Source: Candidatus Bartonella washoeensis Sb944nv
GTDB taxonomy: Bacteria; Pseudomonadota; Alphaproteobacteria; Rhizobiales; Rhizobiaceae
Direction of reading: 5' to 3'
NCBI RefSeq assembly: GCF_000278135.1
Contig: NZ_JH725022.1
Span: forward strand, 8,186-72,185
Length of the DNA stretch: 64,000 bases
The translations under genes and the position numbers were made by a program. Positions 26,979-31,631 of the stretch are shown in pieces. Within the stretch, counting starts at the first letter, position 1, and each line of letters starts with the position of its first letter. The notes under the pieces were generated by a model that saw only the letters and a list, made by a program, of their open reading frames with translations, was not told where the DNA came from and searched no databases.

Positions 26979-27603
26979 GAAGCATCTACAGGTGTTAGTC
27001 CATTAGTAAATTTTCATGAGATAGTTGCTTTGCGGAGAAATTTTCTTCGTAATAAAATTAATGAAAGCCATATAGATGATAATGTCAAAAGTAGTTTAAT
27101 TGGTGTTGAATGGATGAAGGTTACGCAGTTTAGTTTAAACAACTTAGATTTCGTAAAAGAAATTCAAACATTGGCAGTAGCAGTGTTGTCGAGACGTAAT
27201 TTTTTTCTGGGTTAATGTTGGAGATCCAGTGACTATGAACAACTTCCCGATAAGCCTTATGAAACCGTTGGATGTATTTCAACAGGACGTTAGCATTCTT
27301 TCTGAGTACCTAGAATATAAGGGAGAGAGGTGAATAAAAGTTTTATTTTTTTGTATTGAAGTGCTTCCAGAAATATCAAATTATATCAATTTATGCAATG
27401 GGCAGGTCTTAACGTTCAAAGGCGAAGAATCTAGAGCAGAACTAGTCCAAATTTTGTCCAGTACAAGCTTTTATCTTCTTGGTGTAATACAAATTGTTCT
27501 TATAGATGATCCTATAGGGATCGCAGGGTATTACAGAGGAGACTCTCATCAGGATGAGAGATTTGATCACCTCTTTTATATACATGTTCTACATGTTTCA
27601 TAA
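26979..27603 (+). pseudogene. Decayed gene of unknown family (one frameshift, one stop)
   Basis: Two open stretches join if one T is removed from the seven-T run near 27200-27206. Frame 3 reads from about 26979 (E-A-S-T-G-V-S-P-L-V-N-F) to N-F-F, then frame 1 continues with W-V-N-V-G-D-P-V-T-M. That second stretch meets one in-frame TGA at 27331-27333 and then stays open to the TAA at 27601. The combined translation, about 205 residues, has ordinary composition but no ATG near its beginning, so the 5' end is probably also lost. I do not recognise the family. It may instead be two unrelated chance frames; continuity across the homopolymer is the main evidence. Confidence 0.4.
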
Positions 27604-27629
27604 AATAAAAGTCTTGATTTTTATTTTAT

Positions 27630-27989
27630 TTAAAATTTTCGCTTAAGAAAAAATTGTGATCCTGTCTGTGATGTACAGAGAAGCTGTGTTGCATTATACG
27701 ATATCATACAACTAACTTTAGATATGGTTCCACGGAGAATGGAGCGTATTTCAATTTCTATATGTTGAGCACTGACATAATTATACGTGCCTTCTGATAG
27801 TTTTTCTTCTGTATCTGCTGCTCGTGTTTCAAATACACCATTGCTGAAAGAAGAAATGATACCGTTTTCATCAATCCATTTACCGTCGATTCCAGTTGGC
27901 ATATTTTGTCCATAATATTGCGAAAAGCCACAGGCACCTAATACTAAAGCGGTAATTGTAAGACATAAAATACGGTAGGTGTGCTTCAT
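27630..27989 (-). CDS. omp10: Omp10-like outer membrane lipoprotein
   Basis: A 119-residue lipoprotein with a hydrophobic signal and the lipobox L-G-A-C, so it should be lipidated at that cysteine and moved to the outer membrane. The mature part (P-T-G-I-D-G-K-W-I-D, I-I-S-S-F-S-N-G-V-F-E-T-R, R-S-I-L-R-G-T-I-S-K-V) follows Brucella Omp10 from memory almost block by block. The ATG at 27989 is preferred over a GTG at 27998; GAGTG lies just upstream. It is a single gene. Brucella Omp10 is a minor immunogenic lipoprotein of uncertain role. Confidence 0.82.
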   Translation of the reverse strand: MKHTYRILCLTITALVLGACGFSQYYGQNMPTGIDGKWIDENGIISSFSNGVFETRAADTEEKLSEGTYNYVSAQHIEIEIRSILRGTISKVSCMISYNATQLLCTSQTGSQFFLKRKF

Positions 27990-28242
27990 TTTTTTCACTC
28001 GATTTTTGTTACTCAGCTCTTTTAGCTTCTATAACATTGTTAAATTGTTCTATTAGTCAATATGAAAAATTTGATGAAAATCAATGAAAAAGCAAAAAAA
28101 TGGAAAAAATTGCCTTAATGTTGTATTTAATTAACAGCTTGATGAATTTGCTATGTGAAACACAAGAGGTGAAATATTTCTTATGCTTTGCAATAATTCT
28201 TACATTAAGCCGCTTAGTAGTCTCAAAGGAGATTATTAAATT

Positions 28243-29628
28243 ATGGTTGGTCCCATTCTTGTTGCGAGTGAAGATTATGGGAGGCGTATAGAGCTTTCTG
28301 CTATGCTCCGAGGTTTTGGTTATCGTGTCATTGAAGCAGAAAATGGCCTCCGTACGATTGATCTTTTACACAGACGTAAAAATATTGTGCTTGCACTCCT
28401 TGATGTTGTCATGAGCGATTTGAGTGTGGGTGATTTGATTAAAATGATTAGAGTTGCTGGTGTTACTGTTCCTATCGTTGTGATAGCACAACAAGAGAAT
28501 CAAGAATTACTCCAGAAAGCTTTAGCAGCTGGAGCTGTTGATTATTGGATTTATCCAGTTACATTACTACGGTTGAGAGTCACTTTGGATACTCTTGCTC
28601 TCATATCTGCATTGGAGCGTGAGGTCCGTTATATTCGGCGAAAAAATGAGAATCATTTACGGTTTTCTGATCTTTGCATAAAAAGCAGAGCAATGCAGAT
28701 AGTTTTAGAGCAATCGAAGAGAGCAGCGGCTTCTTTACAGAATCTTTTGATAGAAGGTGAAGTTGGAACCGGTCGTGAAACATTAGCCCGCATTATTCAT
28801 CATGAGGGTTTGTTATCTGAAGGAGCTTTCATTCGCTTTCAATGTACAGCTATTGTTGATCCAGAAGAAGAAAATCGCCATTGGTTTAAAGAATTTTTAC
28901 CACTCGTTTCTTCTCTTGAAAAGGGCACACTTTGCCTTTGTGATGTTGATCGACTCGAACCCATACAGCAAAAGCGTTTTGCTGATTACCTTAAAGAAAG
29001 GGAAAAGGTTACAGAGGGTAAAGCTTTTCCTTTTCGGATTATTGCTATTTCAACATCGCGATTGACGGATCTGGTTAAAGAAGACGTATTTTTGCGTAGT
29101 TTATTTGAACAATTTTCCCAATTATCTATAAGTGTTCCTGCTTTACGAGAACTGAGGGATGATTTTCCAGATCTTACGCAACGCTTGATTGACCGCATTA
29201 TTACTGAAACGGGGCGTTCGCATGTACATGGTTTAGCAGGATCCGCTCTTTCATTGCTTATGCAATATGATTGGCCTGGTAACCGAGGTGAACTTGAGAA
29301 TTTTTTATTTCGTGCGATTTTACTAAGTGAGGGGCCATTGTTAACGGTTCGGGATTTTCCACAATTAATGGGAAATTCGTTAATGAGTATTCCAAATATC
29401 ATTGAGAGTAATGTGCAAGAAGATAATGAACAAGAATCGATAAAATTTTTGGATGCTGATGGCCATGTTCGTACTTTTTCTGAGATGGAGCATGATATCA
29501 TTGAGAGAGCGGTTAAACATTATAAGGGACATATGAGTGAAATTGCGCGTCGTCTTCGTATAGGGCGCTCTACACTTTATCGCAAAATAGAGGTTTTGAG
29601 AGTAATGAACAGTAAAGAACGGAAGTAG
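28243..29628 (+). CDS. Degenerate NtrC-type response regulator (receiver, AAA+, Fis HTH)
   Basis: 461 residues in the NtrC layout: receiver (1-120), AAA+ domain (145-375) and a C-terminal Fis-type helix-turn-helix (about 420-455, with A-R-R-L-R-I-G-R-S-T-L-Y-R-K). Key residues are missing. The receiver keeps E10, D11 and the acceptor D54 but has A82 and Y104 where Thr/Ser and Lys are expected. Walker A is G-E-V-G-T-G-R-E with Arg178 replacing Lys. Walker B is L-C-L-C-D-V-D in place of L-F-L-D-E. The G-A-F-T-G-A sigma-54 loop is absent. It is therefore unlikely to be a classical phosphorylated sigma-54 activator and may act as a plain DNA-binding regulator. AAAGGAG lies upstream of the ATG. 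Its target genes are not apparent. Confidence 0.85.
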   Translation: MVGPILVASEDYGRRIELSAMLRGFGYRVIEAENGLRTIDLLHRRKNIVLALLDVVMSDLSVGDLIKMIRVAGVTVPIVVIAQQENQELLQKALAAGAVDYWIYPVTLLRLRVTLDTLALISALEREVRYIRRKNENHLRFSDLCIKSRAMQIVLEQSKRAAASLQNLLIEGEVGTGRETLARIIHHEGLLSEGAFIRFQCTAIVDPEEENRHWFKEFLPLVSSLEKGTLCLCDVDRLEPIQQKRFADYLKEREKVTEGKAFPFRIIAISTSRLTDLVKEDVFLRSLFEQFSQLSISVPALRELRDDFPDLTQRLIDRIITETGRSHVHGLAGSALSLLMQYDWPGNRGELENFLFRAILLSEGPLLTVRDFPQLMGNSLMSIPNIIESNVQEDNEQESIKFLDADGHVRTFSEMEHDIIERAVKHYKGHMSEIARRLRIGRSTLYRKIEVLRVMNSKERK

Positions 29629-30059
29629 AATCCACGACAAATCTCTATTCATGGGAATCGTGATTTTCGGGAAAAGTGTTGTGCTTTTGGTGAAGCAGGG
29701 AAGGCATTTCAGCATTTAGAAGGAGTGTTGTTTATTGCAGCATTTAAGCATTGAGGGTATTTTTGTGAATTCAACGAGAATGGCTTTTGTTTGATTGAAT
29801 TATTTTCAACGCTCTATTTCTTATTTCATTTTCATAACTTTGGTTAAGTTTGCACTTAAGGTGAGAGGGGTAGCTTTTATAGTTTTTAGCACGGAAGCTA
29901 AAATTCTAGGTCATGTTGTTGGGTTTATATTCTCTTAAGCAAAAGATGGCATCCTACCTTTTACACGATTAAGATAGAATCATTGATTACACTGGTTTTA
30001 AGGTTGTGGTTTGTGTCTATTGTGGTGCGATGGCTTAAAAATGGAAAGTTGATCCCTCT
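29629..30059. other. Spacer between regulator and phospholipase-D-like gene
   Basis: About 430 bases with no gene I can support. The upstream part contains the short complementary pair ATTC-C-CACGA-like / GGGAATCGTG near 29632-29660; the rest is featureless. Confidence 0.45.
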
Positions 30060-31631
30060 TTGACTCTGTTACAGATTATTATCAGTTTTATCATATTTTT
30101 TTTTATGGCGTCTATGTTGGCGATCTATACCTATGGACGTTTTATGAAAAATGCTAAGGGGGAGTGCTCTTATGCGTTTAATGTTAAAAAAGATGAAACC
30201 AAGTTTGATCGTATAGTAAGTAAATTAGCAGAAGAAACAGATGGATTAGGGGTTGATAAAGATGCCCTTTCACTCATCATCAGCAATTTGGATGCGTTTT
30301 GTGTTCGTGCAATAGGAGCAGCACAAGCTGGGCGTAGTCTTGATCTGATGTATTATATTTGGGATGATGATTTAACAGGCCGGTTGTTATTAAGTGAAGT
30401 AGTGAAGGCAGCTGATCGTGGTGTTCGGGTACGCCTTCTTTTAGATGATATTAATGCTCAGGCGCGTGATCCAGCTTATATCGCCCTGGATAAACATCCT
30501 AATATTGAGGTGAGAATGTTTAATCCAGGGCGATCACGTAAGGGTGGGTTACGCCGTGGTTTAGAGATTATATTGCGGGCAATCACTGTAACACGCAGAA
30601 TGCATAATAAAGCTTTTATTGTGGATGGCCGAGTGGCTTTTGTAGGAGGACGCAATCTTGCAGATTCTTATTTTGACGCGGGTGAAGAATCACATTTTCG
30701 AGATTTAGATCTGATGTTAATTGGTCCCTCGGTTAAAAAGGTAGAAAACATCTTTGATGACTTTTGGAATAGCGCTGTCGTTTTACCGATTCATACTTTG
30801 GTCGCTCCTAAAAGTGCAGGCGATCTTGGTTATTGGAAGGATAAATTACAAAAATTTCGTGATTCCAAAGTTGCAAAAGTTTATCTAGACTATGTCAACG
30901 AACATATTAATTTTAAATGTTTTATCGAGACAGGAAAGCGATTATTTTTAGCAGATAAAGTGGTTGTTCTTTCTGATCCTCCTGAAAAAGCATTGCGTAA
31001 AAAAGCAGGAAATTGGCTTATGAAGGCACTCTCCCAAGTTATTGGAGAAGCCAAAAAAACGGTTCAAATTACATCACCTTACTTTGTTCCAGGTAAGGTA
31101 GGTACGCGGAATTTGAGTAACTTGGTTTCAAAAGGCGTTGATGTCAAAATTCTTACAAATTCTTTGGCAGCCACTGATGTGGCACTCGTGCATGGTGGTT
31201 ATGTGTCGTATCGTAAGGCCTTATTGAAAGGTGGTGTTAAACTCTATGAGTTAAAACCGGATGGAGATAATCACGGATTGCGATTATTTCGATCAAGTAG
31301 GGCAAGTTTACACACCAAAGCTTTTTTAGTTGATCGTAAAACTGCTTTTATTGGGTCTTTAAATTTTGATCCTCGGTCAGCTGCGCTGAATACAGAAATG
31401 GGCATTCTTTTTGAATGTGCACCGATTACAGCGAGGTTGGATTTGCTTTTTTCTGAGGAAACGACTGGTGAAATGAGTTATCATCTCCGTCTTGGTGATA
31501 ATAACCGTATTTATTGGGATTTTATCGAAAATGAAAGACACTTCAGTATTGATTATGAACCAGAGAGCAGTTTTTGGCGTCGAGCGTTTGCAAAAGTAAT
31601 GAGTTGGTTACCCATTGAATCGCAATTATAG
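30060..31631 (+). CDS. Phospholipase D family protein (cardiolipin-synthase-like)
   Basis: A 523-residue membrane-anchored protein with an N-terminal hydrophobic helix (about residues 4-25) and two PLD catalytic motifs. H-N-K-A-F-I-V-D-G-R with G-G-R-N lies near residue 183, and H-T-K-A-F-L-V-D with G-S-L-N-F-D-P-R-S near residue 423. The pair fits cardiolipin synthase or a phosphatidyl-transferase, but the single N-terminal helix and the long segment between motifs differ from classic ClsA, so substrate is uncertain. The frame has no upstream ATG; TTG 30060, with GGAAAG eleven bases before it, is the likely start. The first ATG, at codon 16, would remove the helix. Confidence 0.88.
   Translation: MTLLQIIISFIIFFFMASMLAIYTYGRFMKNAKGECSYAFNVKKDETKFDRIVSKLAEETDGLGVDKDALSLIISNLDAFCVRAIGAAQAGRSLDLMYYIWDDDLTGRLLLSEVVKAADRGVRVRLLLDDINAQARDPAYIALDKHPNIEVRMFNPGRSRKGGLRRGLEIILRAITVTRRMHNKAFIVDGRVAFVGGRNLADSYFDAGEESHFRDLDLMLIGPSVKKVENIFDDFWNSAVVLPIHTLVAPKSAGDLGYWKDKLQKFRDSKVAKVYLDYVNEHINFKCFIETGKRLFLADKVVVLSDPPEKALRKKAGNWLMKALSQVIGEAKKTVQITSPYFVPGKVGTRNLSNLVSKGVDVKILTNSLAATDVALVHGGYVSYRKALLKGGVKLYELKPDGDNHGLRLFRSSRASLHTKAFLVDRKTAFIGSLNFDPRSAALNTEMGILFECAPITARLDLLFSEETTGEMSYHLRLGDNNRIYWDFIENERHFSIDYEPESSFWRRAFAKVMSWLPIESQL

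What the first reader, a model, noticed from the sequence alone, without database searches (positions are those of the whole stretch)
28243..29628. NtrC-type regulator that has lost its phosphorylation, ATPase and sigma-54 contact residues
The gene is intact and has a clean HTH, yet the receiver lacks the conserved Thr/Ser and Lys (A82, Y104), Walker A has Arg178 for Lys, Walker B lacks the D-E pair, and the G-A-F-T-G-A loop is gone. An intact frame with such losses suggests a repurposed regulator acting without sigma-54, perhaps as a repressor or structural DNA-binding protein.
Basis: partly seen in the sequence, partly recalled or inferred. Interest (0 to 1): 0.5.

Follow-up and report, generated by a model that had tools for sequence, protein, structure and literature searches.

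The report
Conserved NtrC-type regulator without its engine
A gene-control protein in Bartonella has lost the ATP motor and the sigma-54 grip that its relatives use to switch genes on, yet it keeps its DNA-reading end and is preserved by selection, so it most likely works in a simpler, motor-free way.

Summary
The 461-aa protein at 28243-29628 (+) is an NtrC-type protein (receiver, AAA+, Fis HTH) with A82, Y104, R178, C233-D234 and no GAFTGA loop. Both arginine fingers and (here) the sensor II Arg are also gone. The phospho-acceptor D54 is kept, so 'lost phosphorylation' is half right. All 51 rhizobial relatives aligned keep G[A/S]FTGA and the ATPase and receiver-switch residues; none of 53 Bartonella copies does. 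The HTH is untouched: 98% of its near-invariant residues are kept (94% in the rpoN-positive clade), against 36% in the AAA+ core. It is no pseudogene: dN/dS is 0.15 overall and 0.13 in the dead AAA+ part. The genome has no rpoN, but the losses look older: 14 of 71 Bartonella genomes still have rpoN, and all 13 orthologues found there are already dead. A genus that I take for Brucella is half-way (31 of 31 analysed copies lost GAFTGA and both fingers but keep the Walker A Lys). Best reading: an ATP- and sigma-54-independent DNA-binding regulator of sigma-70 promoters. Targets and sign of regulation are untested. GAFTGA-less sigma-70 regulators are a known kind; this is a new, more extreme variant.

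The parts
28243..29628 (+). NtrC-type regulator gene, 461 aa, degenerate receiver and AAA+, intact Fis-type HTH
28243..28587 (+). pseudo-receiver (residues 1-115): D54 and E10 kept, switch Thr is A82, Lys is Y104
   Evidence: model
28402..28404 (+). codon of D54, phospho-acceptor position, kept in 53 of 53 Bartonella copies
28486..28488 (+). codon of A82 (canonical Thr)
28552..28554 (+). codon of Y104 (canonical Lys; H 23, Y 15, Q 2 in 40 main-clade copies)
28678..29145 (+). pseudo-AAA+ core (residues 146-301)
28774..28776 (+). codon of R178 (canonical Walker A Lys)
28885..28890 (+). junction F215/K216 where the loop with GAFTGA is missing
28939..28944 (+). codons of C233-D234 (canonical Walker B D-E)
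29092..29112 (+). arginine-finger positions L284 to Q290 (canonical R at both ends)
29146..29370 (+). AAA+ lid (residues 302-376), WPGN kept, sensor II position G349 (codon 29287-29289)
29470..29601 (+). Fis-type HTH (residues 410-453), GRSTLYRK as in canonical relatives
27999..28242 (.). intergenic region shared head-to-head with omp10 (192-274 bases in 52 Bartonella loci)
28071..28084 (.). TTGAT-N4-ATCAA inverted repeat, candidate operator (weak)
27630..27998 (-). omp10 outer membrane lipoprotein gene, divergent neighbour
   Evidence: NCBIfam NF041251, 130.8 bits, cut-off 100

Best explanation
The gene descends from a canonical sigma-54 activator (receiver, AAA+, HTH) of rhizobia. In what looks like a common line of Brucella and Bartonella the sigma-54 contact loop and the arginine fingers were lost; in the Bartonella line Walker A, Walker B and the receiver switch followed; rpoN itself is gone from most of the genus. 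What is left is a folded protein that reads DNA through an unchanged recognition helix. I think it binds as a dimer, needs neither ATP hydrolysis nor canonical phosphorylation, and regulates sigma-70 promoters by occupancy or contact, plausibly including its own promoter, which faces omp10. Shown: the losses, decayed copies alongside an existing rpoN, purifying selection, the conserved HTH. Inferred: dimer, independence of ATP and phosphate, sigma-70 promoters. Guess: omp10/self as target, and the sign of regulation.
For: Own genome: no rpoN (the same search rang in 4 of 14 control genomes); the only other full-length relative is NtrX. PF00158 has 5 matches in the own genome, of which the listing shows NtrX (181.6 bits) and this gene (40.0); the other three are weaker, not listed and not identified. 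Genus: 71 of 71 genomes have some match at E<=1e-8; the orthologue itself lies in one open frame in 68 (55 rpoN-negative, 13 rpoN-positive), is split in two (G333 by a frameshift, G323 by a contig end) and is not found in one (G358, 85% complete). Residues lost in 53 of 53 Bartonella copies, kept in 51 of 51 canonical ones. Near-invariant canonical residues kept: HTH 98% (main clade) and 94% (rpoN-positive clade), AAA+ core 36% and 36%. dN/dS medians, 40 main-clade copies, 744 pairs: gene 0.148, receiver 0.168, AAA+ 0.126, HTH 0.096; rpoN-positive clade, 13 copies, 15 usable pairs: 0.026. Neighbours: galU 0.115, kpsF 0.118, PLD 0.096, guaB 0.057, omp10 0.278, on 22 to 39 sequences each. rpoN is present in 14 of 71 Bartonella; the 14 strongest PF00158 hits of the genus lie in exactly these 14, the one tested (L189) is NtrC (TIGR01818, 709.6 bits, cut-off 558.6) and the two read have GAFTGA; yet 13 of 13 orthologues of this gene in them are decayed. 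Fold kept: AlphaFold pLDDT 80; best PDB matches Brucella NtrX, NtrC1, NtrC4.
Against: No binding site, regulon or phenotype was shown. The candidate operator is weak: exact in 32 of 52 Bartonella intergenic regions and 0 of 4 others, poor in the clarridgeiae/rochalimae and WD12.1/melophagi groups, and 15 of the 17 exact sites in the genome lie in open frames. D54 is invariant in Bartonella, so a residual phosphate or metal role of the receiver is possible. R for K in Walker A does not exclude nucleotide binding, and the rpoN-positive clade keeps the Walker B Glu (13 of 13). The exception G423: no rpoN match but a canonical copy.
Confidence: 0.75

Rival explanations
1. A decaying relic: the gene lost its job and is on its way to a pseudogene.
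For: Long stem branch; Walker A and receiver Lys positions drift (R/H; H/Y/Q); one genome, G333, carries a frameshift; dN/dS is at the upper end of its neighbours, above all but omp10.
Against: dN/dS 0.10 to 0.17 in receiver, AAA+ and HTH (a short linker, 377-409, reaches 0.35); one open frame in 68 of 71 Bartonella genomes; the active-site decay is shared by 53 of 53 copies and the frame still holds.
Confidence: 0.07
2. A nucleotide-sensing regulator: it still binds ATP or another nucleotide (c-di-GMP as in VpsR or FleQ) without hydrolysis, and this sets its oligomer state.
For: P-loop glycines largely kept (G175 53 of 53, G177 49 of 53); VpsR and FleQ are among the closest folds; R. capsulatus NtrC needs ATP binding but not hydrolysis (PMC10274813, passages).
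Against: Walker A Lys, Walker B Asp and both arginine fingers absent in 53 of 53, sensor II Arg in 49 of 53.
Confidence: 0.12
3. A partner subunit: it forms mixed oligomers with NtrX, the other receiver-AAA-HTH protein of the genome, and modulates it.
For: Both genes survive in rpoN-negative Bartonella, where no PF00158 hit exceeds 183 bits, so an NtrC like that of the rpoN-positive clade is not seen there.
Against: HTH regions differ (NtrX has 53% of this family's near-invariant HTH residues); no interaction evidence.
Confidence: 0.05

Closest known systems
Rhodobacter capsulatus NtrC (seen as described in passages of PMC10274813)
   Same: NtrC-type protein with the loop deleted, reported to act with sigma-70
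   Different: reported to need phosphorylation and ATP binding; this protein has lost Walker A Lys, Walker B Asp and arginine fingers
Caulobacter NtrC (PMC10274813, passages)
   Same: alphaproteobacterial NtrC-type protein with a loop deletion, works at sigma-70 promoters, activates and represses
   Different: its Walker A and B residues are required in vivo; here they are gone
Vibrio cholerae VpsR (PMC10274813 passages; PDB 7v2b)
   Same: receiver-AAA fold, no GAFTGA, sigma-70 promoters, reported not to need ATP or phosphorylation
   Different: its solved structure is described as c-di-GMP binding; no such evidence here; not an orthologue
HupR, TyrR, DhaR (PMC3162934, passages)
   Same: homologues of sigma-54 activators that became sigma-70 dependent
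   Different: other families; none was aligned here
NtrX (own genome L079; Brucella abortus 5m7n)
   Same: no GAFTGA, closest solved fold
   Different: own NtrX keeps Walker A GKE, Walker B DE and REDLFHR fingers and passes the NtrX model (718.7 bits, cut-off 600); this gene scores 141.3
Orthologues in genus g138 (Brucella in the broad sense, judged by NtrX)
   Same: GAFTGA and both arginine fingers lost in 31 of 31 analysed (of 35 genomes)
   Different: keep Walker A Lys (31 of 31), Walker B D and E (30 of 31 each), Asp and acidic pair (31 of 31), sensor II Arg (31 of 31); about 500 aa

Membership tests
bacterial enhancer-binding protein (sigma-54 activator) | receiver-AAA+-Fis HTH order and fold | tested here: met
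   (the fold comparison covers mainly residues 2-380)
bacterial enhancer-binding protein (sigma-54 activator) | GAFTGA loop for sigma-54 contact | tested here: not met
   absent in 53 of 53 Bartonella copies
bacterial enhancer-binding protein (sigma-54 activator) | ATPase residues (Walker A Lys, Walker B Asp-Glu, arginine fingers, sensor II Arg) | tested here: not met
bacterial enhancer-binding protein (sigma-54 activator) | rpoN in the same genome | tested here: not met
   own genome 0 matches; 14 of 71 in the genus
two-component response regulator | phospho-acceptor Asp, acidic pair, Thr/Ser and Lys all present | tested here: not met
   Asp kept 53 of 53; Lys absent 53 of 53; Thr position A in 40 of 40 main-clade copies, S 9, A 3, L 1 in the rpoN-positive clade
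two-component response regulator | phosphorylated by a histidine kinase | not testable with these tools
   biochemistry needed
GAFTGA-less NtrC-type regulators of sigma-70 promoters | GAFTGA absent, HTH kept | tested here: met
GAFTGA-less NtrC-type regulators of sigma-70 promoters | regulates sigma-70 promoters | not testable with these tools
   needs in vitro transcription or ChIP
NtrX | NCBIfam NtrX equivalog cut-off | tested here: not met
   141.3 bits against 600; own NtrX as control 718.7
pseudogene | broken frame or dN/dS near 1 | tested here: not met

The most novel reading that the evidence does not exclude
The dead ATP site has been rebuilt as a different sensor: the Walker B Asp became Cys233 (51 of 53; Tyr in 2), beside a new Cys231 (53 of 53; Phe in 51 of 51 canonical) and the old Cys201 (53 of 53 and 51 of 51), which could form a thiol, metal or redox site that sets the DNA-binding state in a host-adapted genus (that the three lie close together is inference from the AAA+ fold, not measured).
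Probability: 0.1. Interest if true: 0.75.

Novelty: new variant of a known kind. Interest (0 to 1): 0.45.

Why it matters
Living genomes show a graded series, from full sigma-54 activator, through a half-lost form, to a form with dead ATPase and receiver switch, while the DNA-reading end stays the same. That makes it possible to test how an ATP-driven activator turns into an ordinary regulator, and whether loss of activators comes before loss of sigma-54 itself. A label 'sigma-54-dependent' for such a gene would mislead in a genome without sigma-54.

Tried and rejected
Candidate operator TTGAT-N4-ATCAA: exact in 32 of 52 Bartonella omp10/regulator intergenic regions. Genome-wide there are 17 sites, against 0 for the reversed control pattern, but 15 of the 17 lie in open frames and only two are intergenic (for 16 sites, the window for the other); kept only as weak.

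Sigma-54 promoter search in 19 relatives' loci: single one-mismatch hits in 3 loci, none informative.

Shared dyads upstream of the gene: best counts 7 of 50 canonical and 12 of 31 Brucella-type loci, above plain shuffles (3 and 2) but not corrected for relatedness; not used.

Sigma-70 promoter scan of 27500-30100: 7 sites against 8.1 expected, uninformative.

Long-branch worry: Brucella-type and Bartonella-side copies fall together with support 99/98, but branches are long and the earlier tree warned of it; one or two losses of GAFTGA cannot be told apart with certainty.

Literature: the searches (listings only) showed no paper on this gene as a degenerate activator in the held library. [quoted passage not shown] PMC3595295 (passages) names phyR and ompR as temperature-responsive response regulators of B. 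quintana; no link to this gene was seen. PMC5387305 (passages) lists BH11940, a B. henselae regulatory protein with a sigma-54-activating domain, as a predicted small-RNA target; I could not tell whether it is this gene or NtrX. PMC11118080 (passages) proposes WP_011180514.1, a sigma-54-dependent Fis family regulator, as a drug target; its accession is 14 numbers from that of the kdsA product, and in this genome kdsA lies about 14 kb from ntrX, so it is probably NtrX; this is inference.

Rows dropped before counts: L032 (gene cut by a contig end) from the Bartonella alignment; L188 (G333, frameshift) from residue and dN/dS counts; G489 and G483 (broken or partial) and G502 and G506 (no match at the threshold) of 35 Brucella-type genomes; L021 from the structure alignment. 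Three of the 68 open copies (G331, G301, G361) show a stop in the aligned stretch; for G331 and G301 it only shortens the end (457 and 459 aa), G361 was not looked at. L211, L267 and L268 are 100-base filler fetches, unused.

Recalled, not from a call: that the rpoN-positive clade is the bee-gut one; names of the motifs (arginine fingers, sensors I and II).

Full report
What is there. The frame 28243-29628 (+) encodes 461 aa with a receiver, a sigma-54-activator-type AAA+ domain with lid, and a Fis-type HTH. No NCBIfam model reaches its cut-off (best 154.1 bits against 760; 25 of 78 matches shown). The window belongs to Bartonella: closest copies are L118 (unnamed, 93%) and B. koehlerae (91%).

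How much is lost. I aligned 53 Bartonella copies (window, 38 named loci, L118 and 13 from the rpoN-positive clade) with 51 canonical relatives. Canonical: phospho-acceptor, Thr, Lys, Walker A Lys, Walker B D and E, both arginine fingers and sensor II Arg in 51 of 51; first acidic residue D 46, E 4, one gap; G[A/S]FTGA in 51 of 51. Bartonella: receiver Lys 0 of 53; Thr 0 of 53 (Ser in 9); Walker A Lys 0 of 53 (R 50, H 3); GxFTG 0 of 53; Walker B Asp 0 of 53 (C 51, Y 2); Walker B Glu 0 of 40 in the main clade (D) but 13 of 13 in the rpoN-positive clade; arginine fingers 0 of 53 at both places; sensor II Arg in 4 of 53. Kept: D54 53 of 53; HTH residues R436, R442, S443, Y446 and R447 53 of 53.

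Uneven decay. Of positions at least 95% conserved in canonical relatives, the main clade keeps 98% in the HTH (15 positions), 73% in the lid (17), 50% in the receiver (27) and 36% in the AAA+ core (70); the rpoN-positive clade 94, 75, 52 and 36%. The DNA-reading part is held while the motor is gone. Seventeen positions are invariant in Bartonella but differ from the canonical consensus, among them C231.

Selection. Pairwise NG86 dN/dS (pairs with dS 0.1-1) has a median of 0.148 for the gene, 0.126 for the AAA+ domain and 0.096 for the HTH (40 main-clade copies, 744 pairs); the linker 377-409 is looser (0.345). In the rpoN-positive clade it is 0.026 (15 pairs). Five neighbours range from 0.057 to 0.278; this gene lies above four of them.

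Order of events. rpoN is not found in the own genome; it is found in 14 of 71 Bartonella genomes and 110 of 121 family genomes (109 over the cut-off). The 14 strongest sigma-54-activator domains of the genus lie in exactly those 14 genomes; the one tested is NtrC by TIGR01818 and the two read have GAFTGA. So there sigma-54 control looks intact, yet their orthologue of this gene is already dead (13 of 13; in the 14th, G358, 85% complete, none was found). Decayed copies also occur in G391 (rpoN present) and in G435, G454 and G370 (no rpoN match). Two more small rpoN-negative genomes, G408 and G438, have partly decayed copies that keep the Walker A Lys. Against the trend, G423 has no rpoN match but a canonical copy.

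Half-way form. NtrX of G480 (genus g138) differs from Brucella abortus NtrX 5m7n at 16 of 453 residues by my count of the printed alignment, so I take g138 for Brucella in the broad sense. In 31 of 31 analysed copies (of 35 genomes) GAFTGA and both arginine fingers are gone, while Walker A Lys (31), Walker B Asp (30), Walker B Glu (30) and the phospho-acceptor (31) remain. rpoN was searched in two genomes of this genus (G381, G480) and found in both. A tree puts these copies with the Bartonella side, support 99/98; branches are long, so one shared loss of GAFTGA is likely, not proven.

Orthology and context. Omp10 (NCBIfam NF041251) lies in the fetched stretch in 15 of 19 relatives' loci and is the direct head-to-head neighbour in the 52 Bartonella loci measured and in G391, G435, G454 and G370. 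In three of three canonical loci tested by Pfam (L195, L201, L203) the neighbour is an M3 oligopeptidase F, so the omp10 adjacency appears to be derived. Orthology of the more distant canonical copies rests on best matches and the trees.

Structure. AlphaFold (29 sequences, pLDDT 80, pTM 0.55) keeps receiver, AAA+ and HTH; residues 378-404 have low confidence. Best PDB matches: Brucella NtrX (Z 27.0, rmsd 20.7, 408 aligned), NtrC1 (26.6), NtrC4 (26.3), VpsR (23.2) (Foldseek). The large rmsd of full-length hits probably reflects domain arrangement (inference). AAA+-only hits such as FleQ 5exs have rmsd 2.9 over 226 residues.

Mechanism. Known GAFTGA-less relatives act on sigma-70 promoters: R. 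capsulatus NtrC, which needs ATP binding but not hydrolysis; Caulobacter NtrC, which needs its Walker residues; VpsR, reported to need neither ATP nor phosphorylation (PMC10274813, passages). With Walker A, Walker B and fingers gone, this protein is most like VpsR in what it can require. I therefore propose ATP-independent DNA binding at sigma-70 promoters. The omp10/regulator intergenic region is a reasonable first target, but the evidence there is weak.

Noticed in passing
genus Bartonella: The 14 strongest sigma-54-activator domains (NtrC in the one tested) occur in exactly the 14 genomes that have rpoN; NtrX and this gene survive without rpoN.
   Followed up: yes
L188:5290-6701: In G333 the orthologue is split by a frameshift near residue 290; a real pseudogene or a sequencing error.
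   Followed up: partly
L204 and L205 (G408, G438): Two small rpoN-negative genomes carry partly decayed copies that keep the Walker A Lys, perhaps separate decays.
   Followed up: partly
G423 (L164): No rpoN match in a 99% complete genome, yet the orthologue is canonical with GAFTGA; assembly gap or exception.
   Followed up: no
window 28843-28845, 28933-28935, 28939-28941 (C201, C231, C233): Two new cysteines appear at the Walker B strand in addition to an old invariant cysteine.
   Followed up: partly
window 1-64000: No tRNA or tmRNA gene was found in the 64 kb.
   Followed up: no
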